Assembly (NCBI GenBank): GCA_021817145.1
Contig: JAKAVV010000017.1
Span: forward strand, 1-59,516
Source: a bacterium
Lineage (GTDB): Bacteria > Vulcanimicrobiota > JABDET01
Direction: 5' to 3'
Length of the DNA stretch: 59,516 bases
Shown here: positions 41,724-59,516 of the stretch, piece after piece
Numbering within the stretch: position 1 is the first letter of the stretch
Layout: every line of letters starts with the position of its first letter
Position numbers and translations under genes: made by a program
Notes under the pieces: model-generated
The model's input: the letters and a program-made list of their open reading frames with translations, nothing else
Databases searched by the model: none
What the model was told of the DNA's origin: nothing

Positions 41724-42680
41724 TTATCGAGAAAGAAAAAAAGCGGAAGCGGCTAAAACCCCTGTGATCCCATAGAGAATCAAAACCGCTTTTTTCTGGG
41801 AAAGCCCCCAGTTCAAGAGGCGGTGGTGCAAATGTTCTTTGTCCGGTTTGAAAATATTTTCCCCTTTCCCAAATCTCCTAAAAATAGCCATCGAGGTATC
41901 CAGAATCGGCAGTCCTAAAATAAGCAAGGGGACAAAAACCGTAGTCGCAGAAGTTTTTAGAGTTCCTACAATGGTTAAAGATGCCCATAGAATTCCCAGG
42001 AAAAGACTCCCTGAATCCCCCAGAAAAATTTTCGCGGGATTAAAATTATAATATAAAAAAGCCAGAGTTGCTCCTGACATCGCGATTAAGAAAAAAGCGG
42101 GGAAAAGATACCCTTTTTCTAAAGCAATCACGAAAAGAGCAAGAGCTGAAATCGTTGAAATTCCCGACAAAAGCCCATCCAATCCATCCAGAAGATTCAA
42201 AGCATTCGTAATTCCGACAATCCAAAATAAACTGAGTAAAACAGAAATAAAAAAAGGAAGATAAATAATTTTCTGCTCTGATGGAAAATCCACAAAACCA
42301 ATTTTAACTCCAAAAAGAATAAGCCAGAAAGCAGCAGCAATCTGCCAAAAAAGTTTTCGTTTGGCAGGGATAGGATTTAAATCGTCCAAAATGCCAACAA
42401 TTAACATGGTTAACGCAGCGCCAGAGATCCCTGCAAGATCCTTCAAGTGATGCCGAATAAGATCTTGATGAAAAGCATGAGAGTAAACAAAAGCGAAAAC
42501 AACTCCACCTAAGATTCCAAGAAACAACCCTATTCCTCCCCATCTAGGGATTGGATTAAGATGAATTTTCCTTTCATTGGGCAGATCAACGGCATGACAG
42601 CTGGCAGCGAGCTTGATTAGTAAAGGAGTCAAAGCAAGAGTTAAAAAGAAAGAAATAAGAAAAGGCAAAACAAAAGGCAT
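41724..42680 (-). CDS. WecA/MraY-family polyprenyl-phosphate sugar-1-phosphate transferase
   Basis: This roughly ten-helix membrane enzyme shows IPRWGGIGLF, the Mg-binding DDLNPIPAKRK, NALNLLDGLDGL, the FLGDSGSLFLG motif and the cytoplasmic HLHHRLLNWGLS (HxHHRL). It transfers a GlcNAc- or related sugar-1-phosphate onto undecaprenyl phosphate, starting polysaccharide or O-antigen assembly. The HIHHRL-type loop favours the WecA/TagO group over MraY. I choose ATG 42680 since the longer form starts at TTG and overlaps the upstream gene. No glycosyltransferase cluster is nearby. Confidence 0.9.
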   Translation of the reverse strand: MPFVLPFLISFFLTLALTPLLIKLAASCHAVDLPNERKIHLNPIPRWGGIGLFLGILGGVVFAFVYSHAFHQDLIRHHLKDLAGISGAALTMLIVGILDDLNPIPAKRKLFWQIAAAFWLILFGVKIGFVDFPSEQKIIYLPFFISVLLSLFWIVGITNALNLLDGLDGLLSGISTISALALFVIALEKGYLFPAFFLIAMSGATLAFLYYNFNPAKIFLGDSGSLFLGILWASLTIVGTLKTSATTVFVPLLILGLPILDTSMAIFRRFGKGENIFKPDKEHLHHRLLNWGLSQKKAVLILYGITGVLAASAFFLSR

Positions 42681-42696
42681 TTTAAAATTGCCTGTC

Positions 42697-43224
42697 TTAA
42701 GAAGAAGTTTCTTCCAAAACAATAGGGGAAACCGAGAATTTGTTCCCCCCTTCTTGAATCGCGATTTGAAGCCCTTTCTGGGCTACAAGTATCATCTCGT
42801 GCGCGGTTTTTGCATGTTTTAAGAAAGTGGAAATGCCAATATCTAAACCCATCTGAAATTCTGGAACTTTGTCATCTCCTTTAAAACGGTGATTTTCAAC
42901 CTCTTTCAGCAGCCTGCCTGCCGCTAATTTAGCCCCTTCTTCACCGGTTTCAGGGAGAAGAGCAAGAATCTGCTCCCCTTCATATCGGGCTACCAGATCA
43001 ATGTCTCTCAAAACCTTTCGGAAAATTGCTCCCAGCTGCTTTAAAAACGAATAATGAAGGCTGGTTTTCACGTAGGAATCGTTTTTAAAAAACTCATAAT
43101 TCGGCTGGGCTAAAAGAAGAGATAAATCTTTCTTATATCGTTTGACTCGGAGAACTTCTTGTTCAAGTTCCTGCAAGAAAAACTTCTGAGTCGCAAATCC
43201 TGTCAGTTTATCAATTTCAGGCAT
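42697..43224 (-). CDS. GGDEF-fold protein with a degenerate active site
   Basis: The 175-residue protein has the start of a diguanylate cyclase (DKLTGFATQKFFLQEL) and the right length and layout for a lone GGDEF domain, with RDIDLVARYEGEQILALLPET in place of RxGGDEF (residues 81-85 are YEGEQ). The missing Gly and Asp mean it should not make c-di-GMP, though it could bind a nucleotide or a partner. It follows the Hanks kinase after an 80-nt gap on the same strand and ends 17 nt before the WecA-like gene. Confidence 0.75.
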   Translation of the reverse strand: MPEIDKLTGFATQKFFLQELEQEVLRVKRYKKDLSLLLAQPNYEFFKNDSYVKTSLHYSFLKQLGAIFRKVLRDIDLVARYEGEQILALLPETGEEGAKLAAGRLLKEVENHRFKGDDKVPEFQMGLDIGISTFLKHAKTAHEMILVAQKGLQIAIQEGGNKFSVSPIVLEETSS

Positions 43225-43304
43225 GGCTTTTAATTACACGATTCTTCCCAGGCTTCTTAATTCCTTTGACATCGGAAAAATTTCCCGTTGATCTCTTCCC
43301 CTTC

Positions 43305-44465
43305 TCATTTGTTTCCGATAAATTTCGAAACAAACTGTTCCACATATCTTTTTCCTTTCTCCCAATCCTCTCTATTCCCTGGCGAAATCTCCCCCATAAA
43401 AGTTTTCGATAACAATCCTTCTTTAAAAGAAAAACGAATAACATTTTTAACTGGATCGGATTCAACCATTAAAACATAAGGAACCTGAACACCAAGAACA
43501 AATGAAAAAGAGCCTTGATTTTCAGGAAGAGATAAGGTCTGACATTCATTCATATAATCTTTCTGCACCTCTTGCAGCAAAGGGAAAAGAGAGGATGTAA
43601 AAAAAAGACGGCAGGATTCCTGGAATGAGTGTTCAGGGTTTTCAGGAACTTTTTCGGGTAAAAGGGTCTGCAGGGCTTCTTCAAATAATTCCGCGCTCTG
43701 GAAACGGTTTTCTGGTTCATAACTTAAAGCAGTTAAAAGGATCTCTGAAAACTCTTTGGAAAGACTCGAATTCAGGTCACAGGGGGGCAAAAAGTCAAAA
43801 CTGGATTCATCTGGTCTTTTTCCTGTTGAAATTTCATGGAGGGTGGCTCCTAAAGCGTACAAATCGGATCTGGAATCCACTTGATTGAGATACTGTTCAG
43901 GGGGAGCGTATCCAGCGGTTCCAATCATCATTCCCTGCTTCATGGTTCCCGCATTTGCGATTCCAAAATCAATCAGAAAAATTTTCCCATCCACCTTTCT
44001 TTCCATCAAATTCGAAGATTTAATATCTTTATGAATCACAGGGGCAGGTTTTCGAGTATGCAAATAATCCAGAATTCTGCAAACTTCAATCCCAATTCTA
44101 GCCACTTTCTCTTCAGACAAACCGATTCTCCCTGTTTCATTCAGGAAGCTCGAGAAATCTTTCCCCTCAATAAACTCCATAACAAAAAAAAACCCGCGAT
44201 TCTCTACAAAATGGTCTAAAATTTTTGGGATCTGCGGGTGGAAAAGGGATTTCAATACCCCCATTTCAGCCAGAAAATTTCCGATCCCTGTTTCTTTATC
44301 TTCTAAAGTTTCATAAACTGAAACCAGTTCTTTTACAGCCACGATTTTCCCACTTTCCAGGTCTATCGCCTGATAAGCGGCCCCCATTCCACCTCTTTTG
44401 AGCAAAACTGAAATTTTATACCTCCTGGACAAGATCGTTCCAGGTAAAAGGGGGTTAAAAGTCAT
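43305..44465 (-). CDS. Hanks-type serine/threonine protein kinase
   Basis: The 386-residue soluble kinase has a glycine loop (KRGGMGAAYQA), Lys45 in IVAVKEL, Glu67, the catalytic loop HKDIKSSN (Asp147; usually HRDIKPxN), IDFGIA (Asp166) and GYAPPEQY. After the kinase domain (about 1-265) comes a 120-residue tail with no named domain. No membrane helix or PASTA domain is seen. It overlaps a small helical protein by 11 nt and may be regulated by it. Confidence 0.9.
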   Translation of the reverse strand: MTFNPLLPGTILSRRYKISVLLKRGGMGAAYQAIDLESGKIVAVKELVSVYETLEDKETGIGNFLAEMGVLKSLFHPQIPKILDHFVENRGFFFVMEFIEGKDFSSFLNETGRIGLSEEKVARIGIEVCRILDYLHTRKPAPVIHKDIKSSNLMERKVDGKIFLIDFGIANAGTMKQGMMIGTAGYAPPEQYLNQVDSRSDLYALGATLHEISTGKRPDESSFDFLPPCDLNSSLSKEFSEILLTALSYEPENRFQSAELFEEALQTLLPEKVPENPEHSFQESCRLFFTSSLFPLLQEVQKDYMNECQTLSLPENQGSFSFVLGVQVPYVLMVESDPVKNVIRFSFKEGLLSKTFMGEISPGNREDWEKGKRYVEQFVSKFIGNK

Positions 44466-44808
44466 TATTTCTTATAAATTCATTCAACAAATCACAGCCC
44501 CATTTTGCCAGCCCAAGCCCCTGCCATAAAAGTTCCTCCTGGGGTTTTTCCTGATCCGCGATTTTGCGCGCTTTTTCGACTCCTTGCTCAAACAAGGCAA
44601 ACCCTTTTTCAGCTTTTATTATCTCCTTTTTCAACTTCGAATTCAATTCAGGGGGCAGCGAGATCGATTTAAACTCTTTCCAACCCATTCGTATAAACGT
44701 TAAAATTCGGTTAGCGGTTTCTTCAAAAACCCCTCTGCTGATCTTTCCTTTTAAATAAGCAGAACCAGCTTCAACCAGTTCATCATAATGGCCGTAGCAA
44801 GCATCCAT
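44455..44808 (-). CDS. Small helical protein upstream of the Hanks kinase
   Basis: This 117-residue protein is not recognised. It is predicted almost all helix (FEETANRILTFIRMGWKEFK, KKEIIKAEKGFALFEQGVEKARK), with no membrane segment. It overlaps the kinase gene by 11 nt and begins 3 nt after the NarL-type regulator stop, so it sits between two signalling genes. A regulatory or adaptor role for the kinase is plausible but unproven. Confidence 0.55.
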   Translation of the reverse strand: MDACYGHYDELVEAGSAYLKGKISRGVFEETANRILTFIRMGWKEFKSISLPPELNSKLKKEIIKAEKGFALFEQGVEKARKIADQEKPQEELLWQGLGLAKWGCDLLNEFIRNNDF

Positions 44809-44811
44809 AAA

Positions 44812-45474
44812 TTATTCAACCAGCCTGTTTCTCATGGCATAAGCCACTGCTTGAGCTCGATCATGAACATCTAATTTTTTATAAATTGCCCTTAAATGCG
44901 CCTTCACTGTTGTCTCTCCAACAATGAGAACATCCGCGATCTCTTTATTGGATCTTCCTTCAGCCACCAGTTTTAAGACATCCACTTCCCGATCCGAAAG
45001 CCCTCTCAAGCTGGATTTCAATCGAGTCTGTTCTGTTTCTTTAGACAAATGGGCAAACTGCTTTAATACTTTTTTGGCGAGCGCCGGCTGAATGAGAGAT
45101 TCCCCGGAATAGACGATCCGAATGGCGCGAATCAAATCGTCTTTTGAAATATCTTTTAAAACATAGCCGCTGGCTCCAGCTTTAATCGCTTCAAAAACAT
45201 ATTCATCTTCATTATACATTGAAAGAATCATGACTTCCACTTTTGGAAACTGCTCTTTAATCATTCGTGTCGCTTCTATTCCTGTAATTCCCGAAAGCCG
45301 AATATCCATTAAAATAATATCAGGATTCATTTTTTTTACCAGAGAAATCGCTTCCTCGCAGCTGGCTGCCTGACCCACCACATTCATGTCCTGTTCCAAC
45401 TCCAGCATTTCCGCAAATCCTTCCCGCACCAGAGTATGGTCATCCACCAGGAGGATTTTGATTTTTTCTTCCAT
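44812..45474 (-). CDS. NarL/FixJ-type response regulator
   Basis: From ATG 45474 the receiver domain begins directly (KIKILLVDDHTLVREGF; acidic pair 11-12, Asp57 in MDIRLSGITG) and a LuxR-type helix-turn-helix ends the protein (LSDREVDVLKLVAEGRSNKEIADVL, TVKAHLRAIYKKL). It would be phosphorylated by the hybrid sensor encoded just upstream (45522-47399). The frame also extends to ATG 45519, which is possible but adds 15 residues not typical of the family. Confidence 0.9.
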   Translation of the reverse strand: MEEKIKILLVDDHTLVREGFAEMLELEQDMNVVGQAASCEEAISLVKKMNPDIILMDIRLSGITGIEATRMIKEQFPKVEVMILSMYNEDEYVFEAIKAGASGYVLKDISKDDLIRAIRIVYSGESLIQPALAKKVLKQFAHLSKETEQTRLKSSLRGLSDREVDVLKLVAEGRSNKEIADVLIVGETTVKAHLRAIYKKLDVHDRAQAVAYAMRNRLVE

Positions 45475-45521
45475 GAAAGCAATATTCTCACTCCAAACTG
45501 CCATCCCTGCCAGAGGCATGG

Positions 45522-47399
45522 TCAGTCAGGGACCTCCACCAGAATAGAGGTTCCTCCACCTGGAATCCTCTCCATTTTAAATGTCCCCCCTAAAAGGGCG
45601 GATCTTTCTTTCATTCCTGTTATCCCGACAGACTCCCCTTTATGAATTCCCCCATCAGGGTCTTTCTGGATTCCTTCTTTCCCATTATCACTGATTTTAA
45701 GCTGTATCTTTCCATTTCCGCTCTTTAAACAGACCTCTGCTTTACTGGCATACGAATGTTTTTTTATGTTTGTGAGGGCTTCCTGAACAATTCGATAAAG
45801 AGCGGTTTCCAGAGCGGGAGATAATTTCTTTTTTTCCAGATAAACCTGAAAATCAACCTGAATTCGATTTTCTGCCTCGAATTTCTTGAGATAATGTTCA
45901 AGCGTTGTAATAAGACCTAGATCATCCAGTGTTGAAGGACGAAGGTTGAAAATAATCTGCCGAACTTCTTGAATGCTTTCAGAAATCTGTTTTTTCAATT
46001 CTTCCAGCTGAACCATTCCTTCTTCTTGAGCTCGAGTTAGAACAGCCTGACAGGTTTGTATTTTAGTATGCATGCTCACAAGAGATTGAGCAATAGAGTC
46101 ATGCAGTTCAGCAGAAATTCTTTTTCTTTCTTCCTCCTGAGCATTAATCACTTTAGAGAGCAGAGCTTCAATTTGCTTCCTGCTCTGAGTGGCGTCCTCA
46201 TATAACTTTGCATTTTCTATAGTGATGGCTGCTTGAGAAGCAAGGGTCGCTAAAAAAGTCAAATCTCCCTCTGATATCTCAATTTTCTGGCTAAATAAAA
46301 GCGCTGCAAAACCGAGCTTTTTCTCTTTTGTTGCCATGGGAACAAGAACAACATAAACCGCTGGAATATCACAGGCAACTCCGCTGACCAGAACTGGCTT
46401 CCCTGTTTTAAACGCCAATTCCTTCGCTGATCTCGAAGCTGTAAAAAGAGGCGCGTTTCCTCTGGACGCGCGCGCAGGGAAAATTCCGTTTTCATTCATG
46501 AAGATTAACCCGCTTTCAGCGTTAATCTGGTCCCCCATCCAGGTGAGCGCAGAAGAAAAAATAAGGTTTAAATCCATGACAGACCCCATTGTTTTTCCTG
46601 CTTCATACAGGGCATTCAACTCTTTTACTTTGGTGTGCAGCTCTTTAACCAGAGCCCTTGCCCTTTCTTCGCTGGCTTCTTTTTCTTCCAGCATGCCCCA
46701 CATAAATTCAGCGCCGTACCCTTTTAAAATTTCGAGATCAGGAGAAATCTCTCGGACTTTGTCAGGATCCAGTAAACCAGTTCCTGTTTGAATCAGGAGA
46801 TCCACATCAGGCAGATGGCAGAGATCATAAAGATCATGGAAAACAGGTATCTTTAATTCCCTGGCAAGGTTTAACATCGGATCCGTATGTTTCGTTTCAG
46901 CAACCCCTAGAATCTGAATTCTAGAATTTCCAAGAAGGGTTTGTAAAATAGCGGTTCCTCTTTCCCCTCCTCCAGCAATAGCCACTCGTGTGACAGGCAC
47001 GGATTCAAGAGGAAGATAAGGGGCTGCTCGAGATCTGGGTTTTAAAGTTCGGTTCACAACCTCCAAAAGGCGCATGGGATTAAAAGGCTTTGTAATATAA
47101 TCGCTGACTCCTAATTCCCACCCCTTTTTCTGGTCCTCTTTCTGCCCCATAGCTGTTAAAACAATGACTGGAATGTTCGAGGTGACAGGGTTTATTTTCA
47201 GGCGTTCCAGCACCTGCCATCCATTTTTTTTAGGCATTAACAAATCTAAAATAATTAAACAGGGTTGATGTTGAATCGCTTTTTCAAGAGCTTCTTCGCC
47301 ATCATAGGCAAGAATGGTTTGATAACCTTCTAACTCCAGACTGACCTGGATAACACGAACAATATTAGGGTTGTCATCTGCCACAAGAATTGACTTCAT
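45522..47399 (-). CDS. Hybrid sensor kinase: receiver, Rossmann-like, GAF, HisKA_3/HATPase
   Basis: Domains in order: an N-terminal receiver (Asp52 in LDLLMPKKNG; Lys104 in TKPF); a Rossmann-like domain (about 137-240) with AIAGGGERGTAILQTLL, where GxGxxG-like glycines suggest NAD(P) binding; a coiled coil; a GAF domain (about 275-430); then a NarX/NarQ-type kinase core with AELHDSIAQSL, NLRPSTLDDLGL and LKISDNG, GITGMKERSALLGG. It should phosphorylate the NarL-type regulator encoded 47 nt downstream. The Rossmann domain might sense NAD(H) or another dinucleotide, an unusual sensory input. A promoter sits at 47406-47434, spaced for a leaderless mRNA. Confidence 0.88.
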   Translation of the reverse strand: MKSILVADDNPNIVRVIQVSLELEGYQTILAYDGEEALEKAIQHQPCLIILDLLMPKKNGWQVLERLKINPVTSNIPVIVLTAMGQKEDQKKGWELGVSDYITKPFNPMRLLEVVNRTLKPRSRAAPYLPLESVPVTRVAIAGGGERGTAILQTLLGNSRIQILGVAETKHTDPMLNLARELKIPVFHDLYDLCHLPDVDLLIQTGTGLLDPDKVREISPDLEILKGYGAEFMWGMLEEKEASEERARALVKELHTKVKELNALYEAGKTMGSVMDLNLIFSSALTWMGDQINAESGLIFMNENGIFPARASRGNAPLFTASRSAKELAFKTGKPVLVSGVACDIPAVYVVLVPMATKEKKLGFAALLFSQKIEISEGDLTFLATLASQAAITIENAKLYEDATQSRKQIEALLSKVINAQEEERKRISAELHDSIAQSLVSMHTKIQTCQAVLTRAQEEGMVQLEELKKQISESIQEVRQIIFNLRPSTLDDLGLITTLEHYLKKFEAENRIQVDFQVYLEKKKLSPALETALYRIVQEALTNIKKHSYASKAEVCLKSGNGKIQLKISDNGKEGIQKDPDGGIHKGESVGITGMKERSALLGGTFKMERIPGGGTSILVEVPD

Positions 47400-47405
47400 G
47401 TCTCT

Positions 47406-47434
47406 ATCATAATAGAAAAAAAAAGAAAAAGCAA
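47406..47434 (-). promoter_or_regulatory. Promoter placed for a leaderless sensor-kinase mRNA
   Basis: On the minus strand TTGCTT (47434-47429) and TATGAT (47411-47406) are 17 nt apart, and the -10 element ends 6 nt before the ATG at 47399, which puts +1 on or next to that A. No ribosome site is seen. Confidence 0.5.
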
Positions 47435-47444
47435 GATCTTATTC

Positions 47445-50400
47445 GTGAGAGCAAAAAGGACTGTGGGTTTTAAAACGCAAATTTTAAGGGATATGGAGCG
47501 TCTAGAAGTTTTACAGCAGGGGGTCCTCTTAAATCCCAAAAATGCGGAAGCCCATTACCAACTGGCAGAAGCCCTTCTTCACCATGGGAGAATGGAAGAG
47601 GGAATGAAGCATTTCCAGGAGGCGCTAAAAATAGATCCTCGCCACATCCCTTCCCGATTTTCTTTAGGGGCTGTTTATCTCCGCTTGAACCGTATTCAGA
47701 ATGCAATCCAGGAATGGCAGGAAGTGGTGGCTGAATCCCCCAATTTTATGAGAGCCCATTACAATTTAGGACTGGCTTACGAAAAAATGGGCTTAAAAGA
47801 GCAGGCTTTAACTCACCTGCATATCGCCTTAAAAATTGTGCAGAATCAAGGAGATTCTGTTGGAGAAAACAGAATTGAACAAGAACTTGAGCGCCTGGAA
47901 AGAGGAGGAGAATTAGAAAAAAGAGTCCACAGCGATCCTCAAAACCTTGAAGCGCGATTCCAGTTAGGAACCATTTATTTCAGGCAGGGAAATCTTTCTC
48001 GAGCCATGGATGAATTCAAGGAAGTGCTGCGGTCAAATCCAAACCATATTGAAGCCACTTATCATCTTGGTTCAATTTATTACAAACAGGGAAAATTCCC
48101 TCTTGCTCTTGACAGTTTTAAAAAGACGCTTTCTCTGGATCCTGATTACAAAACCGCCTATCCTCAACTCGCTCTCTCTCTTTATCAATTAGGCCGCCTT
48201 GAAGAAGCTGCGGAAGTTTTTCACAAAGCGGTGGCTCTTGATCCTAAAGATGCTTATGGATATTACAATCTTGGAAGAGTTTACGCTCGGATGGGAAATC
48301 ATCAAGAAGCAATCCCGTATTTCCAGAAAAGCCTTGAGCTTAACCCACATGATTCTTACTGCCACAACAATTTAGGACTTTCCCTTTCCGCGACAGGAAT
48401 GATGGACGAAGCGATTCGTCATTTCCAGAAAGCGGTTGATTTAGATCCCAATGATGGAACAGCCCGGTATCACCTTGGCAGGGCTTTTGCGTCCATTAAA
48501 AACTTAGATCAAGCCATTATTGAGCTGGAAATGGCTTCAGAATTATCCTCTGAAATCCCTGAAATTCATCATGAATTAGGGAAGATTTATCATCAATTAG
48601 GAAATTTTCCAAAAGGATTAGAGCATTTTAGAAAAGCGATTGATCAAGATTCAGGGAATTCGAAGTTTTATTTTGATCTGGCTCTCCTTCTCACGGATGA
48701 AAAAAGATACGATCTGGCGCTGAGACAGTTAGAAAAGAGCTTAAAACTTCAGCCTGACGAAAAGCGCTTCCTGCTGAAACGCGCAGAAGTGTTCGGCAAA
48801 CTTAAAAATTGGAAATCAGCGCTGCAGGACGCAGAAGCGGTTTTGTCTCAAGATCCCAATTGTTTACCTGCTCTTATCGCAGTGGGACAGTGCGCTTATG
48901 AACAGAAAGATGCGGCAAAAGCTCTCGGCGCCCTTGAGAAAGCCATTTCTCTTGATCCAGAGAGTTCTCCCGCCCTCTTTCTTCTTGGAATTCTTTACCT
49001 GGAAAAAGGAGATCCAGAAAAAGCGATTCCCGCTTTTTTAACCTGTGTCAGAAAAAATCCAGAAAACTTTCAGGCTTATTTCAATTTAGGGAAAAGTTAT
49101 CAGGCAATTGAAGATTATGGCAGCGCCCTTCAATCTTTTGAGAAAACTCTTGTTTATCACAAACTCCATGCAGAAGCTCTTTTCTTCAAGGGATTGTGTT
49201 TAACTGAACTAAAAGAGTATCCTGCTGCTCTAAAATCACTCCTGAAAGCGGAAGAAGCGGGGATGGATTCAGCCCCTCTCTTTTATCAAATAGCAAAAGT
49301 TTATTTTCAAACAGGAAATTTCAAACAGGGAATTCAGCAGCTGGAAAAGGCGCTGCAGAAACAGCCCAACGATCCTTCTTATTCTCTGCTTATGGCTGAA
49401 TTCCAGTTAAAAACAGGGAATTATCAAGACTCTTATTCAACTCTTGACAAACTCGTAAAATCTCACCCTGAAGAAGCAGCAGCTTATTCTCTTTTAAGCA
49501 AAGTCGCTTTAACTCTTGACCAGTTTGAAAAAGCGGAAGAAGCAGCTCAAAAAACGGTCTCCCTTCGATCCCAAACCCCCTCTGTCTATTTTCAGCTAGC
49601 CGACGTTCAATTCAGAAGAAAAAAATGGAAAGAATGCATACAAAATCTTCAACAAGCTCTGGCTCTTCATGCATCGCAAAACAACCCTGAAAATCCAGGT
49701 CCTTATTACGAACTTCTCGGCTCAGCCTTAGAACAGGAGAAAGAGTATCGTAAAGCCATTGATGCTTTTCAGCAAACCATTAAACTAAACCCATTGATGG
49801 AAAATCGAGGAATCCTTGATTATCGGATTGGAGCCATTTATCTGACTCTCGGGAAAACAAAAGAAGCCTTGAGGGCTTTTCAGAAAGCTCTTGAAAACGG
49901 ATTGGATGATTCAATGCTTCATGAATCAATAGCCCAAGCCTTCATTCTCCAGGGAGAGTGGGAAAAAGCAAAAGAAACCTTGTCAAAAGCAAGTCGAATC
50001 CATTCGCTTCCTCTTTCATCCTCTACCCTCATGTTAAAAATTCTTGCGCGGCTAAACGCTTTAGAAGAAGCGGAAAGATTTTTCAAGGAAGCTTTAAGCA
50101 AATTGAATCAAGCCGAATCTTTCCATCAGAAAGCCGAATTGTACAAAGAAGCAGGGGAATTCTTTCACCAAAAAGGGGAGCTCGAAAAAGCGGAGGAATG
50201 GTTCAAAAAAGCCTTAGATTTGAAACCTAACGACCCCTACTTTTTAATGAATCTCGGTTCCGCGTTTTTAAGCGGCGGCAAAATCGCTGAAGCGATTCCA
50301 CTGCTTCGTTCCGCTGTTTCTCTTGACCCTGATCTTTTAAAAGCGCAGCTGCTTCTTGCGCGAGGATTGATCTCGTTGAAAAGCGATGAATCCGCTCTGC

Positions 50401-51203
50401 TTGTCCTTGAAGAAGCTCTAACCTCCTGCCCTTCTTCAGGAGAAGCCAACCATTTGAGAGGCCAGATCTTAACCCGTAAAGGACGATTTAGAGAGGCTGA
50501 AAAGTCTTTTGAAAAAGCTCTGCGGTTTTACCCCAATCAAGCCGAGGTTTATGTTGCTTTAGGGCAAAGTTATTTCGCAAGAGGAGAAGTTCAAAAAGCT
50601 CTGGAGAATTTTCAAAAAGCCGTTCAATCATCCCCTCAATTTCACTCAGCCTATTCTGAAACAGCTCGAGTTTATGCTGCTCAAGGAGATATAGAAACCG
50701 CTCTCCGATATTATGAGCAGGCAATTGAATTCAATCCTAAAGACGCCAATCTTCACTTCCAGATTGGGCTCCTGCTGTACCGCCAGAAAAGGGTAGATGA
50801 TGCCATTGAAGCGTATAAAAAAGCGGTCCAGCTTGACAAAGGATTTTTCCTTGCTCACACATACCTGGGGATAGCCTACGCAAATATTGACAAACTGGAA
50901 AGAGGAATTGAAGAATATAAAAAGGCTTTAACGATTAAACCAACAGATTTAATCACTCGATATAATTTGGCAGTGGCTTATACTCGCGCCAAAAAATTCA
51001 ATGAAGCTCTTGAAGAATGCCAGAAAGTAGTGGCTCTTGATCCTGATTACACAGAAGCCCATCAAGCTCTTGCTCTTCTTTATGAAAAAAAGGGGGAGAT
51101 AAAAGAAGCGATCTTTCACCTGGAAGAAGCTTTGAAAAAAATTGACAGTGGAGTCATGAAAGAGGATCTAGCGAAAAAACTTGATCGGCTGAAAAAAGCA
51201 TGA
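47445..51203 (+). CDS. Giant TPR protein (1252 residues, more than 30 repeats)
   Basis: Almost the whole protein consists of 34-residue tetratricopeptide repeats, easily seen in blocks such as AHYQLAEALLHHGRMEEGMKHFQEALKIDP and AYYNLGRVYARMGNHQEAIPYFQKSLELNP; one stretch near 135-155 is irregular. There is no signal peptide or membrane segment. It begins with GTG 47445; ATG 47493 is the other option and neither has a good ribosome site. It would be a long superhelical scaffold. It leads a three-gene run with two roadblock-type genes, which suggests a protein complex. Confidence 0.85.
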   Translation: MRAKRTVGFKTQILRDMERLEVLQQGVLLNPKNAEAHYQLAEALLHHGRMEEGMKHFQEALKIDPRHIPSRFSLGAVYLRLNRIQNAIQEWQEVVAESPNFMRAHYNLGLAYEKMGLKEQALTHLHIALKIVQNQGDSVGENRIEQELERLERGGELEKRVHSDPQNLEARFQLGTIYFRQGNLSRAMDEFKEVLRSNPNHIEATYHLGSIYYKQGKFPLALDSFKKTLSLDPDYKTAYPQLALSLYQLGRLEEAAEVFHKAVALDPKDAYGYYNLGRVYARMGNHQEAIPYFQKSLELNPHDSYCHNNLGLSLSATGMMDEAIRHFQKAVDLDPNDGTARYHLGRAFASIKNLDQAIIELEMASELSSEIPEIHHELGKIYHQLGNFPKGLEHFRKAIDQDSGNSKFYFDLALLLTDEKRYDLALRQLEKSLKLQPDEKRFLLKRAEVFGKLKNWKSALQDAEAVLSQDPNCLPALIAVGQCAYEQKDAAKALGALEKAISLDPESSPALFLLGILYLEKGDPEKAIPAFLTCVRKNPENFQAYFNLGKSYQAIEDYGSALQSFEKTLVYHKLHAEALFFKGLCLTELKEYPAALKSLLKAEEAGMDSAPLFYQIAKVYFQTGNFKQGIQQLEKALQKQPNDPSYSLLMAEFQLKTGNYQDSYSTLDKLVKSHPEEAAAYSLLSKVALTLDQFEKAEEAAQKTVSLRSQTPSVYFQLADVQFRRKKWKECIQNLQQALALHASQNNPENPGPYYELLGSALEQEKEYRKAIDAFQQTIKLNPLMENRGILDYRIGAIYLTLGKTKEALRAFQKALENGLDDSMLHESIAQAFILQGEWEKAKETLSKASRIHSLPLSSSTLMLKILARLNALEEAERFFKEALSKLNQAESFHQKAELYKEAGEFFHQKGELEKAEEWFKKALDLKPNDPYFLMNLGSAFLSGGKIAEAIPLLRSAVSLDPDLLKAQLLLARGLISLKSDESALLVLEEALTSCPSSGEANHLRGQILTRKGRFREAEKSFEKALRFYPNQAEVYVALGQSYFARGEVQKALENFQKAVQSSPQFHSAYSETARVYAAQGDIETALRYYEQAIEFNPKDANLHFQIGLLLYRQKRVDDAIEAYKKAVQLDKGFFLAHTYLGIAYANIDKLERGIEEYKKALTIKPTDLITRYNLAVAYTRAKKFNEALEECQKVVALDPDYTEAHQALALLYEKKGEIKEAIFHLEEALKKIDSGVMKEDLAKKLDRLKKA

Positions 51204-51261
51204 AAAGGGATGACAGCCTACCAGTGAGAATAGTAAAAGACATATTGGAAAAGAATTTAAT

Positions 51262-53370
51262 ATGATCGAATTTCTGCGGGAAAAAGTGACGGCGAGTTTA
51301 TCTGAAGAACAGGAAAAACTCCTGGCATCTTCCCTTTCCAATCAATATAATCCTATTCTAGGTTCTGCCTCCGCGAAATTTAAAGAACTTCTTGGACAAA
51401 GCGGAAAGGAGAAATCGAACACTCCAGGGGATCTCTTTATTCTAAAAGATTCCAATGGGAAAAATCAGAAATTTTTTTATTATTTCAAAACTTCTTCAGG
51501 GCTTGAAATCGGATCGTTTGCCTCCGGAGAAATCTCCACGGATTACAATGCTTTTGCTCAGTCTGTTCTCTCAAGTCTTGGTTCAGATGCCCAGAGACGC
51601 CGCATTTCTTCTATCAATCCGACTTTTTCTTTTTTATATCAAGAATGGGGAAAATTTTCTATTCCAGAAGAGGAGCGTTTGGCTGCCCGCATGTTATTCG
51701 ATGCTCAAGTTAGATCGTGGTTCCAGGATCTAATCAAATCAGAGAGGAAACAGTGGACTGAATCTCCTGAAGAACTATCAAAAATGCTTCTAGACCAAAT
51801 GGAAAAACAGGGGATGTTAAAAAGCCAATTTTCCATTTTTTGTTCTCAAACAGGGAATCAAATGATGATGGTTGAATCAGTAGAGGCGATTGAGGAAGCC
51901 ACAAAACAAGGATTTAAATGTTTTACATGCGGACGCTCCTTTTCCGAAGAAAAACAAATCCGATTCATCAGCCCCACTCCTTTCGGGAAGAAGATAGCCA
52001 CCCCTCATTACTGGCTTGTTCTTCAGGCTTGCGAGCTGCTAGAACCTTTTATCCCGCAGGATAAAATTTGCGTTGTCTTTGAAAAAGACAGCGCTTCGGT
52101 TATCGCGAATGTGGAAACAAGCCTTCTGCTTCTGGAAGTTAAAGACACCCCTTATCGCCTAAAAGACGCTTTTCTTTTTTCGCAAAAAATCGCTCTTTAC
52201 AAGCCTGCAGCCAGCTGCATTCTGACAAACTCCCCCTTAAACCCTGAAGTCATGCAGTATCTAGAATCAGCTCTGCCTGACTGTTTTTACAAAACTGCAG
52301 AGTCGAGCGACCAGCTGAAAGAAGCCCTGCCTCTTCTTCTGCAAAAAGCCCAGGAACGGCATCTGCAAGAAATTCTCTCCCCTTTCATGCAGCTTTCTGT
52401 TCTGCCCATAGATTTCTATGCTTTGAATTATTTTTTCCCTGGAGGAGAAATTTCAATTCCTGAATCTCGCCCCACTGTTCCAGAAACCTTGCCCTCTGTG
52501 GAAGAAGCGGTTCCTCCAGCTCCTCAATCACGGCCCACAAAAGAGGAAAAAAGAGAAGAAATTCTGGAGACTCTTCCAAAAGAAATTTTAGAATTCGAAC
52601 CCAGGGATATGGTTGTTCGCAAATCGAGTAAAACCGAAGCTCTAGAGAAGATTTTGGGCGAACTGAGAAAAGGGGGAGCTGGCAGAGAATCCAGTTTGCA
52701 TATTCTGCTTCAAGATTTAAATGACGCGGACAAACGTTCAAAAGCCTGCCTCGTCAGCAAGGATGGATTGGTTATCGCTTCCACTTTACCTGAAGAAACA
52801 AGCGAAATTTTCGCCTCTTATGGAACGGATTGTTTCTCTAAAGCGCAGTCAGTTCAGGAACAAAAAAGCTTCTCTTCTCTTCAGAGCCTTTTCATGGCAT
52901 CACAAAATTTTTCTCTCCAAATTTACCCTGTATCTGAATTTTATCTCATAGTCGCAACAACTCTAGAAACCGTTATGATTGAACCCCTGCCTGAAACTTC
53001 TCTACCAGAAGCGCTGAAACAAATTTGCGATCGTCTTTTAGCAAAACGCGGTATAGAAGGGGTTGGAATTTTAAATTCTACAGGAGAGTTCTTATGCCAG
53101 GCAGGGAAAGAAATCATGGGCAAAACATTTCTCCCGCCAGATTTCCTCCCCCTTTTCTCTGGACTTTCTTCCTCTTTTAGCCAAATTGGACAGGGGGATC
53201 TTGAATGTGTTGGACTGCAAACTGATTCTGAGCAGCAAACTTTGTTTCGAAGTGAAAAAGGGTATCTTTTAGCTCGGTTTGAAATGAACCAGCCTCTTGA
53301 AGATATTGTTCCTGAAGTTCTATCTGTAACTCAAGATGTTTCTCAAATCTTAAAATCCAGCCCCGTGTAA
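51262..53370 (+). CDS. 702-residue protein with two C-terminal roadblock-like domains
   Basis: Residues 1-about 180 are helical and unknown. Residues 190-350 contain FKCFTCGRSF (Cys220, Cys223) and a beta-alpha segment with LLLLEVKD. This last might recall a restriction-endonuclease-like core (E-x-K), though that is guesswork. Residues about 395-455 are a Pro/Glu-rich linker. Residues 460-570 and 585-698 each look like a roadblock/LC7 unit (KACLVSKDGLVIASTLP and GVGILNSTGEFLCQAG followed by strands and a helix). It lies between the giant TPR gene and a stand-alone roadblock gene. Confidence 0.6.
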   Translation: MIEFLREKVTASLSEEQEKLLASSLSNQYNPILGSASAKFKELLGQSGKEKSNTPGDLFILKDSNGKNQKFFYYFKTSSGLEIGSFASGEISTDYNAFAQSVLSSLGSDAQRRRISSINPTFSFLYQEWGKFSIPEEERLAARMLFDAQVRSWFQDLIKSERKQWTESPEELSKMLLDQMEKQGMLKSQFSIFCSQTGNQMMMVESVEAIEEATKQGFKCFTCGRSFSEEKQIRFISPTPFGKKIATPHYWLVLQACELLEPFIPQDKICVVFEKDSASVIANVETSLLLLEVKDTPYRLKDAFLFSQKIALYKPAASCILTNSPLNPEVMQYLESALPDCFYKTAESSDQLKEALPLLLQKAQERHLQEILSPFMQLSVLPIDFYALNYFFPGGEISIPESRPTVPETLPSVEEAVPPAPQSRPTKEEKREEILETLPKEILEFEPRDMVVRKSSKTEALEKILGELRKGGAGRESSLHILLQDLNDADKRSKACLVSKDGLVIASTLPEETSEIFASYGTDCFSKAQSVQEQKSFSSLQSLFMASQNFSLQIYPVSEFYLIVATTLETVMIEPLPETSLPEALKQICDRLLAKRGIEGVGILNSTGEFLCQAGKEIMGKTFLPPDFLPLFSGLSSSFSQIGQGDLECVGLQTDSEQQTLFRSEKGYLLARFEMNQPLEDIVPEVLSVTQDVSQILKSSPV

Positions 53371-53382
53371 GGAGTGTTTTGA

Positions 53383-53730
53383 ATGGAAGAAATTCTCGAA
53401 AAATTAAGCCAGACAACAGGAGTAATCGGCTGCTTTATCACAGGGCTTGATGGACTTGTCGTGGCAAGCAAAATCCGTTCTGATAAAGATCAAGATTTAC
53501 TGGCAGCCACAACAGCCGATCTTTTTAGAAGCCTTGGATCCGCTTTTGAAAAATTAGACGAAGGCAAAACTGTGCTGTTAACCATTGAGAGGACAAACGA
53601 TAAGATCTTCATTTATCCCCTGGAAAACATGGAAACCATTCTTGTTGTTTTAACAGAGCCTAAAATCAACCTGGGGCTGATTCGGATGGAACTCCAAGAA
53701 GCATTGAAAAAGTTAAAAAATCAATTTTGA
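53383..53730 (+). CDS. Roadblock/LC7 domain protein (MglB-like)
   Basis: The 115-residue protein has the roadblock fold: EEILEKLSQTTGVIGCFITGLDGLVVASK, then helices and DKIFIYPLENMETILVVLTEP. Roadblock dimers such as MglB act on small Ras-like GTPases in polarity and motility; no GTPase gene is in this window. The ribosome site (TAAGGAG) overlaps the previous gene stop, so it is coupled. Confidence 0.85.
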   Translation: MEEILEKLSQTTGVIGCFITGLDGLVVASKIRSDKDQDLLAATTADLFRSLGSAFEKLDEGKTVLLTIERTNDKIFIYPLENMETILVVLTEPKINLGLIRMELQEALKKLKNQF

Positions 53731-53778: not shown

Positions 53779-53854
53779 TGGTGGAGCTGAGCGGGCTCGA
53801 ACCGCCGACCTTCTGCATGCCGAGCAGACGCTCTCCCAACTGAGCTACAGCCCC
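53779..53854 (-). tRNA. tRNA-Ala (GGC) with an odd anticodon loop
   Basis: On the minus strand the acceptor arms GGGGCTG and CAGCTCC include the G3-U70 pair that identifies alanine tRNA. The anticodon stem TCTGC/GCAGA closes a loop TCGGCAT, so the anticodon is GGC. Position 33 is C instead of the near-universal U. CCA is encoded. Confidence 0.93.
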
Positions 53855-58059: not shown

Positions 58060-58626
58060 TTAAACCCACAATTCTTTCAATGAAAACTCAAGTCCAAAAA
58101 AAAGAGTAGGTTTAACTATTTCACTCCCCTGCTTTTTTGCGATTAACTGATACTCCCCTTTCACCAACTCATACATCTCCATTGTTTTTTCCATCGGATC
58201 CACGATCCAGCAGCGAGGCACTTTGAACTGAGCGTAAAGTTTAAACTTTCTTGTTCGATCCATTTTCTTGTTTCCCTTAGAAAGCACTTCTACGACCAGA
58301 TCAGGAGAACCGAAAATTCCTCGCTCTTTAATCAAATTTCTCCTCTCATTGGAAACATAAACCAGATCAGGTTCAACCACATGGATATCGGATAAAACAA
58401 CAGCATAAGGAGCGCAGATGACTACTCCAATTGGATTTTTATTGAGATATTGATCTATAATTCTGGTTAACCGAGTCACTGATATTTGATGAGAAAATCC
58501 AGGGGGTGGTGTCATGAACAGTTCTCCTTCGATAAGCTGATACTGTTTCCCATCATCAGGAAGCAGGAAGTAATCATGATAATTTAAGAGACTGCTTTCT
58601 TCAAATTTTGGTCTTGCAAGGCTCAT
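58060..58626 (-). CDS. Uma2-family putative endonuclease, copy 1
   Basis: The 188-residue PD-(D/E)xK-fold protein has QLIEGELFMTPPPGFSH at the start, the acid residues in EPDLVYVS and SPDLVVEVLSKG (D-x-x-VEVLS), and NKKMDRTRKFKLYAQF, the usual Uma2 core. Uma2 proteins are widespread in cyanobacteria and other environmental bacteria, usually in many copies, and their role is not firmly known. AAGGAAAAGG lies ahead of the ATG. Its twin at 58910-59476 differs by about ten residues. Confidence 0.8.
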   Translation of the reverse strand: MSLARPKFEESSLLNYHDYFLLPDDGKQYQLIEGELFMTPPPGFSHQISVTRLTRIIDQYLNKNPIGVVICAPYAVVLSDIHVVEPDLVYVSNERRNLIKERGIFGSPDLVVEVLSKGNKKMDRTRKFKLYAQFKVPRCWIVDPMEKTMEMYELVKGEYQLIAKKQGSEIVKPTLFFGLEFSLKELWV

Positions 58627-58773
58627 TTCTTACCTTTTCCTTTATTGGAAACTTTCTCTTCGAAAAGGAGGGATTCCTTGTCAGCAGCGGATTAAATAAT
58701 CTTGTAAATCGCGCAAGACGGATTTTCTCCCCAAGCCACTCTCCCTAGATTTAGCCCGAAAAATACAGAAAGG

Positions 58774-59516
58774 TATGACTGCCAGAATACACGCAGCAGT
58801 CAATTCCTTCGGGAAACCCCTGGGCGCCTGTGTTTCACTGAATAACATGTCATTCAGTGAAGACCGAGGGCAGGAGCAGTTCGAAAGAAAAACTGGCAGG
58901 ATAAAGCCGTTAAACCCACAATTCTTTCAATGAAAACTCAAGTCCAAAAAAAAGAGTAGGTTTAACTATTTCACTCCCCTGCTTTTTTGCGATTAACTGA
59001 TACTCTTCTTTCACCAACTCATACATCTCCATTGTTTTTTCCATCGGATCCACGATCCAGCAGCGAGGCACTTTGAACTGAGCGTAAAGTTTAAACTTTC
59101 TTGTTCGATCCATTTTCTTGTTTCCCTTAGAAAGCACTTCTACCACCAAATCCGGTGAACCGAAAATTCCTCGCTCTTTAATCAAATTTTTCTTTGCATT
59201 GGAAACATAAACCAGATCCGGTTCAACCACATGGATATCGGATAAAACAACAGCATAAGGAGCGCAGATGACTACTCCAATCGGATTCTTATCTAGATAA
59301 TTCGCAAGGATTTTGCTTAATTGAGTAACTGATATTTGATGAGAAAATCCAGGGGGTGGTGTCATGAACAGTTCTCCTTCAATAAGCTGATACTGTTTCC
59401 CATCATCAGGAAGCAGGAAGTAATCATGATAATTTAAGAGACTGCTTTCTTCAAATTTTGATCTTGCAAGGCTCATTTCTTACCTTTCCCTTTATTGGAA
59501 ACTTTCTCTTCGAAAA
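58774..59516. repeat. Tandem duplication, copy 2 (runs to window end)
   Basis: This is the second copy of the non-coding block plus Uma2 gene described at 57897-58666. A 107-nt non-repeated spacer (58667-58773) separates the copies. The match continues to the last base of the window, so the unit may extend or repeat again beyond it. Confidence 0.85.
58910..59476 (-). CDS. Uma2-family putative endonuclease, copy 2
   Basis: The 188-residue near-twin of the previous gene has the same acid and Lys core. Differences cluster at residues about 50-60 (QLSKILANYLD against RLTRIIDQYLN), a few scattered positions and one in the C-terminal part (E against G). Most other codons are identical, so the duplication is recent, and the small cluster could be the result of gene conversion or early divergence. 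Confidence 0.8.
   Translation of the reverse strand: MSLARSKFEESSLLNYHDYFLLPDDGKQYQLIEGELFMTPPPGFSHQISVTQLSKILANYLDKNPIGVVICAPYAVVLSDIHVVEPDLVYVSNAKKNLIKERGIFGSPDLVVEVLSKGNKKMDRTRKFKLYAQFKVPRCWIVDPMEKTMEMYELVKEEYQLIAKKQGSEIVKPTLFFGLEFSLKELWV

What the first reader, a model, noticed from the sequence alone, without database searches (positions are those of the whole stretch)
47445..53730. Operon of giant TPR, double-roadblock and LC7 proteins
A superhelical scaffold of more than 30 TPRs, a 702-residue protein with two roadblock-like domains, a CxxC and an uncharacterised core, and a stand-alone roadblock protein are in one direction with 12-58 nt gaps. Roadblock proteins usually work with Ras-like GTPases; none is encoded here. 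This may be an undescribed complex controlling a GTPase elsewhere, perhaps for pili or cell polarity.
Basis: partly seen in the sequence, partly recalled or inferred. Interest (0 to 1): 0.6.

Follow-up and report, generated by a model that had tools for sequence, protein, structure and literature searches.

The report
GTPase-less roadblock operon with dedicated kinase
A bacterial operon makes a giant TPR scaffold, a large protein ending in two roadblock domains and a small roadblock protein, and across its phylum it travels with a dedicated histidine kinase and response regulator rather than the Ras-like GTPase that roadblock proteins normally serve, so these proteins probably work here as a GTPase-free signalling platform.

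Summary
Three co-directional genes encode a ~35-repeat TPR protein, a 702-residue protein with two C-terminal roadblock domains (the second divergent), and a 115-residue LC7 protein; gaps are 58 and 12 nt. The order is conserved in up to nine families of the same phylum at 20-25% identity. The main interpretation is not supported: four searches find no MglA-, Roc- or GPN-like GTPase in the genome, and a clear MglA appears in only 1 of 149 phylum genomes. The closest relatives of this kinase in the phylum lie beside the 702-residue homologue in 13 genomes. The uncharacterised core resembles a winged-helix/zinc/degenerate Mrr-Card1-like fold; a core-only paralogue sits beside nucleotidyl-transferase genes. 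A second, parallel roadblock module is encoded elsewhere in the genome. Best reading: a GTPase-independent roadblock/TPR platform that gates a dedicated two-component system, possibly for surface-polysaccharide control. The mechanism is inferred; structure prediction failed; distribution outside the phylum is untested.

The parts
47463..51203 (+). Giant TPR scaffold, about 35 repeats (ORF from 47445; likely start GTG 47463, 1246 aa)
   Evidence: orthologue immediately upstream of the 702-aa homologue in nine families if f5 (split ORF on a short contig) is counted
51262..53370 (+). 702-aa core plus double-roadblock protein (RB702)
   Evidence: family in 31 of 149 phylum genomes (includes core-only paralogues)
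51664..51831 (+). Winged-helix-like segment, residues ~135-190 (weak)
   Evidence: HVO_A0114 model matches 3 of 35 family members, best E 0.0017
51841..51930 (+). Putative Zn site C194-x25-C220-x2-C223
   Evidence: Rad50 zinc-hook-like match
51994..52296 (+). Degenerate PD-(D/E)XK (Mrr/Card1-like) domain, residues ~245-345
   Evidence: family profile matches 8bao DUF1887 chain, E 1.2e-5 overall (individual stretches weak); Mrr_cat in 3 of 20 members, best E 3.3e-5; catalytic D lost in this protein and motif not family-wide
52705..52953 (+). Roadblock domain 1
   Evidence: PF03259, E 1.3e-6 in the genome search, E 3.5e-7
53011..53355 (+). Roadblock domain 2 (divergent), residues ~584-698
53383..53730 (+). 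Stand-alone roadblock/LC7 protein, 115 aa; 97% identical to the G007 orthologue although RB702 is 67%
45522..47399 (-). Histidine kinase REC-(unassigned)-GAF-HisKA_3-HATPase, divergent from the TPR gene
   Evidence: closest relatives in the phylum are in RB702 operons
44812..45519 (-). LuxR/NarL-type response regulator, follows the kinase
   Evidence: conserved next to the kinase in six families
47400..47462 (.). 63-bp divergent intergenic region, presumably a shared promoter region
   Evidence: inference

Best explanation
The locus encodes a five-protein signalling module (TPR, RB702, LC7, HK, RR) that does not use a Ras-like GTPase. The TPR superhelix is a scaffold. The roadblock domains of RB702 pair with each other and/or with LC7 to build a rigid platform, and the RB702 core (winged helix, Zn site, nuclease-fold domain that appears to have lost its catalytic residues) binds an input ligand or partner. 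The platform then controls the dedicated cytoplasmic REC-GAF-HisKA_3 kinase, which phosphorylates the LuxR-type regulator to change transcription, possibly of surface-polysaccharide genes and of the module itself. Shown: gene content, domains, conserved order, dedicated kinase, absence of recognisable MglA. Inferred: physical complex, direction of signal, inactive nuclease, output.
For: Order TPR-RB702-LC7-HK-RR is complete on one strand in G005 and partial or divergent in six more families. In a whole-phylum search with the window kinase (E<=1e-45) 16 genomes match; in 13 the best match lies beside the RB702 homologue, in G009 at a contig end compatible with this, and the weakest two (G028, G030) are in a family without RB702. 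Families whose operon lacks the kinase (f2, f14, f15) have no match to it. No MglA, Roc-type or GPN GTPase recognised in this genome. A second module in the same genome repeats the design with giant TPRs, LC7, REC proteins, a kinase and a TPR-roadblock protein. Conservons show that roadblock proteins can be wired to histidine kinases (PMC4316618, PMC13343842).
Against: No interaction, expression or mutant data. Families f2, f14 and f15 have TPR-RB702-LC7 without a neighbouring kinase, so the trio can exist without it. G143/G144 keep RB702 without TPR or LC7 beside it. The f16 operons with a kinase lack LC7.
Confidence: 0.45

Rival explanations
1. MglB-like regulators: the roadblock proteins act as GAP/GEF for an MglA-type GTPase encoded elsewhere.
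For: 421 of 749 MglB family members are coupled to an MglA (PMC4316618); the LC7 profile matches MglB structures.
Against: No MglA in this 97%-complete genome and one in 149 phylum genomes; PF00025, PF08477 and PF03029 give only housekeeping-sized or unidentified frames or nothing.
Confidence: 0.06
2. Envelope/polysaccharide assembly scaffold: TPR and roadblock proteins organise a surface-polysaccharide machine, and the two-component system only adjusts expression.
For: The core-only paralogue is beside an NTP-transferase or guanylyltransferase/phosphomannomutase-like gene in 12 of 17 loci inspected. The second roadblock module of the same genome ends in a Wzy_C O-antigen-ligase protein next to such a gene. 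A WecA-like transferase (Glycos_transf_4) is at 41724-42722.
Against: No polysaccharide gene is conserved beside the RB702 operon itself across families.
Confidence: 0.25
3. Nucleic-acid sensor or defence module: the core is a Card1/Mrr-like nuclease regulated by roadblock domains.
For: Profile match to 8bao (DUF1887) and Mrr_cat, winged helix and Zn site.
Against: Catalytic motif intact in only some full-type members, D lost in the window protein, motif absent in core-only paralogues; conserved through whole families of the phylum rather than patchy. PADLOC was not searched.
Confidence: 0.1
4. The divergent kinase/regulator pair only controls transcription of the operon and the proteins do not interact.
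For: Divergent arrangement with a 63-bp spacer in the window and G007.
Against: In f3, f6, f7, f9, f13 and f16 the kinase is co-directional and downstream, as part of the operon.
Confidence: 0.14

Closest known systems
Actinobacterial conservon / AGPS (CvnA kinase, CvnB roadblock, CvnC, CvnD GTPase)
   Same: Roadblock protein co-encoded with a histidine kinase
   Different: No GTPase found; giant TPR and a core-roadblock fusion instead; soluble REC-GAF-HisKA_3 kinase and a response regulator, which conservons lack (PMC4316618)
Myxococcus/Bdellovibrio polarity module (MglA, MglB, MglC, RomR, TPR proteins SgmX/Bd2492)
   Same: Roadblock proteins (in Myxococcus), TPR protein and receiver-domain regulator
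   Different: No MglA; TPR protein much larger (about 35 repeats, SgmX has 14, PMC11580455); transcriptional-type regulator
Orphan MglB/roadblock proteins
   Same: Roadblock gene without neighbouring MglA; 328 of 749 MglB homologues were orphans and none had been characterised by 2014 (PMC4316618)
   Different: Here embedded in a defined conserved operon with a dedicated kinase, in a genome without recognisable MglA
Mrr / Card1 (DUF1887) PD-(D/E)XK nucleases
   Same: Weak but collinear profile match of residues ~245-345
   Different: Catalytic residues not conserved; fused to roadblock domains; no CARF domain recognised

Membership tests
Roadblock/LC7 superfamily (PF03259) | Domain match above curated cut-off | tested here: met
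   LC7 49.9 bits, RB702 domain 1 30.3 bits, cut-off 23
Roadblock/LC7 superfamily (PF03259) | Second domain of RB702 is a roadblock | tested here: met
   By family profile and hhalign against a shuffled null; not above Pfam cut-off in this protein
MglA/MglB polarity module | Ras-like GTPase MglA in the genome | tested here: not met
MglA/MglB polarity module | GAP/GEF activity of the roadblock protein | not testable with these tools
   needs biochemistry
Conservon / AGPS | CvnD-type small GTPase | tested here: not met
   No MglA, no PF03029
Conservon / AGPS | Histidine kinase co-encoded with a roadblock protein | tested here: met
   kinase type differs (HisKA_3, receiver domain)
Conservon / AGPS | CvnC (DUF742) protein in the operon | tested here: not met
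   No DUF742 match among the operon and neighbouring signalling proteins scanned; whole genome not searched for it
PD-(D/E)XK nucleases (Mrr/Card1) | Fold similarity by profile | tested here: inconclusive
   8bao overall E 1.2e-5 but best single stretch weak (i-E 0.26); Mrr_cat 3 of 20 members
PD-(D/E)XK nucleases (Mrr/Card1) | Conserved D...(D/E)xK motif | tested here: not met
   Motif varies across the family and is absent in the core-only type

The most novel reading that the evidence does not exclude
Roadblock domains, on a giant TPR scaffold and together with a dead nuclease-fold sensor, directly regulate a histidine kinase with no GTPase involved: a GTPase-free branch of roadblock signalling, present twice in one genome.
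Probability: 0.33. Interest if true: 0.78.

Novelty: new variant of a known kind. Interest (0 to 1): 0.57.

Why it matters
Bacterial roadblock proteins are understood almost only as regulators of MglA-like GTPases, while many orphans had no characterised role in the 2014 survey (PMC4316618). This module gives orphans a defined partner set (TPR scaffold, core fusion, dedicated kinase and regulator) in a lineage nearly devoid of MglA, so the question of what roadblock proteins do without a GTPase becomes testable. It also defines an unannotated protein family (the RB702 core).

Tried and rejected
The single genome-contig scan used one protein and found only the same-genus relative, so distribution outside the phylum is untested; the alignment was too divergent for a viral contigs pattern. 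The first hhalign test of domain 2 was contaminated by an unrelated 711-aa G006 protein and was redone. MglA, Roc and GPN GTPase hypotheses rejected. The Rad50 zinc-hook match is read as a resemblance around the CxxC only. Serpin matches in the PDB profile search are judged to be chance in a helical region. The phylum could not be named; only L033 has a title (bacterium isolate FK4.bin95).

Full report
Observation. An iterated repeat model finds 32 TPR units in 34-residue register plus three spacings of 66-68 residues where degenerate repeats fit. The likely TPR start is GTG 47463, which gives 1246 residues like the same-genus orthologue. LC7 and residues 482-564 of the 702-residue protein match Robl_LC7 above cut-off, and these are the only two such matches in the genome.

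Second roadblock domain. Residues about 584-700 of the window protein are not recognised by Pfam. Relatives in other families have an unmistakable roadblock domain at the same place (for example G005 701-808, E 1e-15). The family profile matches PDB roadblock chains in both regions, and the divergent domain of the window family scores 25-28 by hhalign against a column-shuffled null of mean 12, maximum 17.5. 'Double roadblock' is therefore right.

Conservation. Relatives of the 702-residue protein occur in 31 of 149 phylum genomes; there are two types, the full core-roadblock protein and a shorter core-only paralogue. The TPR gene is directly upstream of the full type in families f1, f2, f3, f7, f13, f14, f15, f16 and, as a split ORF on a short contig, f5; LC7 is directly downstream in f1, f2, f3, f6, f9, f13, f14 and f15. 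Sequence identity between families is about 20-25%. In G010 the TPR orthologue exists but is unlinked.

No Ras-like GTPase. PF00025 and PF08477 hit two open frames of 848 and 460 residues, the sizes of IF2 and Der (identity by size only), and PF00025 also an unidentified 392-residue frame; PF03029 hits nothing. A GTPase too divergent for these models is not excluded.

The partner. In the window, a REC-GAF-HisKA_3-HATPase kinase and a LuxR-type regulator are divergent from the TPR gene. In G005 the order TPR-RB702-LC7-HK-RR is continuous on one strand; kinase and/or regulator follow RB702 or LC7 in G006, G010, G011, G013, G131, G132, G133, G145, G146 and G148. A whole-phylum search with the kinase at E<=1e-45 finds 16 genomes: 13 have it beside the RB702 homologue, G009 has it at a contig end, and the two weakest, G028 and G030, have no RB702. 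Genomes of f2, f14 and f15, whose operons lack the kinase, have no match to it. The kinase is thus a dedicated but not universal partner.

The core. Residues about 1-430 were uncharacterised. The profile of residues 240-400 matches the nuclease region of a DUF1887 (Card1/Can2-like) structure, 8bao, with E 1.2e-5 overall though the individual stretches are weak, and three members match Mrr_cat (best 3.3e-5). Three members match a winged-helix model, and C194...C220xxC223 is conserved in most members. The D...ExK motif is present in some full-type members, has lost D in the window protein and is absent from the core-only type, so I read it as a binding fold, with modest confidence. The secondary structure from AlphaFold is compatible, but that model has pLDDT 33.5 and carries no weight.

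Context. The core-only paralogue lies beside an NTP-transferase or guanylyltransferase/phosphomannomutase-like gene in 12 of 17 loci inspected (domains checked on one such gene). The same genome encodes a second roadblock module on C29: giant TPR proteins, a 297-residue 'PKGN' protein, an LC7 protein below the Pfam threshold, two receiver proteins, a kinase, a TPR-roadblock protein and a Wzy_C-TPR protein, close to such a transferase/mutase gene. Its marker protein is found in 27 genomes, all of which also have the RB702 family; since both follow the same lineages this is not independent evidence of cooperation.

Interpretation. Shown: gene content, roadblock domains, conserved order, dedicated kinase, no recognisable MglA. 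Inferred: that RB702, LC7 and the TPR protein form a complex; that it gates the kinase; that the output includes surface polysaccharide. Literature support for roadblock-kinase wiring that I found exists only with a GTPase (conservons; PMC4316618, PMC13343842); the roadblock-TPR-receiver combinations I found are built around MglA (PMC3983030, PMC11580455). The locus works like a signalling hub of these kinds but is not a member of either, since the GTPase was tested and not found. No description of this operon turned up in the papers searched, which is a limited search.

Noticed in passing
Same genome, C29 (L116:6017-16104): Second roadblock module: giant TPRs, 297-aa PKGN protein, LC7 below Pfam threshold, two REC proteins, GAF-type kinase, TPR-roadblock protein, Wzy_C O-antigen ligase with TPRs, near a guanylyltransferase/phosphomannomutase-like gene; marker protein present in 27 of 149 phylum genomes.
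   Followed up: partly
Same genome, C10:13101-14351 (L057:9045-10355): Core-only paralogue of RB702 (436 aa, no roadblocks), beside an NTP-transferase-like gene and a ComF-like gene (both by eye); the transferase neighbour is conserved in many genomes.
   Followed up: partly
window 45522-47399 (-): Between REC and GAF the kinase has a ~120-residue segment that looks by eye like a Rossmann NAD-binding domain (VAIAGGGERG...); no Pfam match.
   Followed up: no
window 42697-44808 (-): Next to the regulator: a 117-aa unknown protein, a Ser/Thr kinase with an unknown C-terminal domain, and a GGDEF protein whose motif looks degenerate (RYEGEQ). Among the loci compared, the same cluster is kept only in G007.
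   Followed up: partly
L055:2167-5391, L056: In family f2 the operon is preceded by SIS-domain, FHIPEP (FlhA C-terminal part only, 469 aa) and RNase PH genes.
   Followed up: no
L094 / L102 (G148:C186): The only clear MglA in the phylum sample (54% to M. xanthus), near a roadblock match at a contig end; may be acquired or contamination.
   Followed up: no
window 58060-59476 (-): Two nearly identical 188-aa proteins in tandem (Uma2-like by eye).
   Followed up: no
window 53779-53854 (-): tRNA-Ala (ggc) directly downstream of LC7 bounds the operon.
   Followed up: yes
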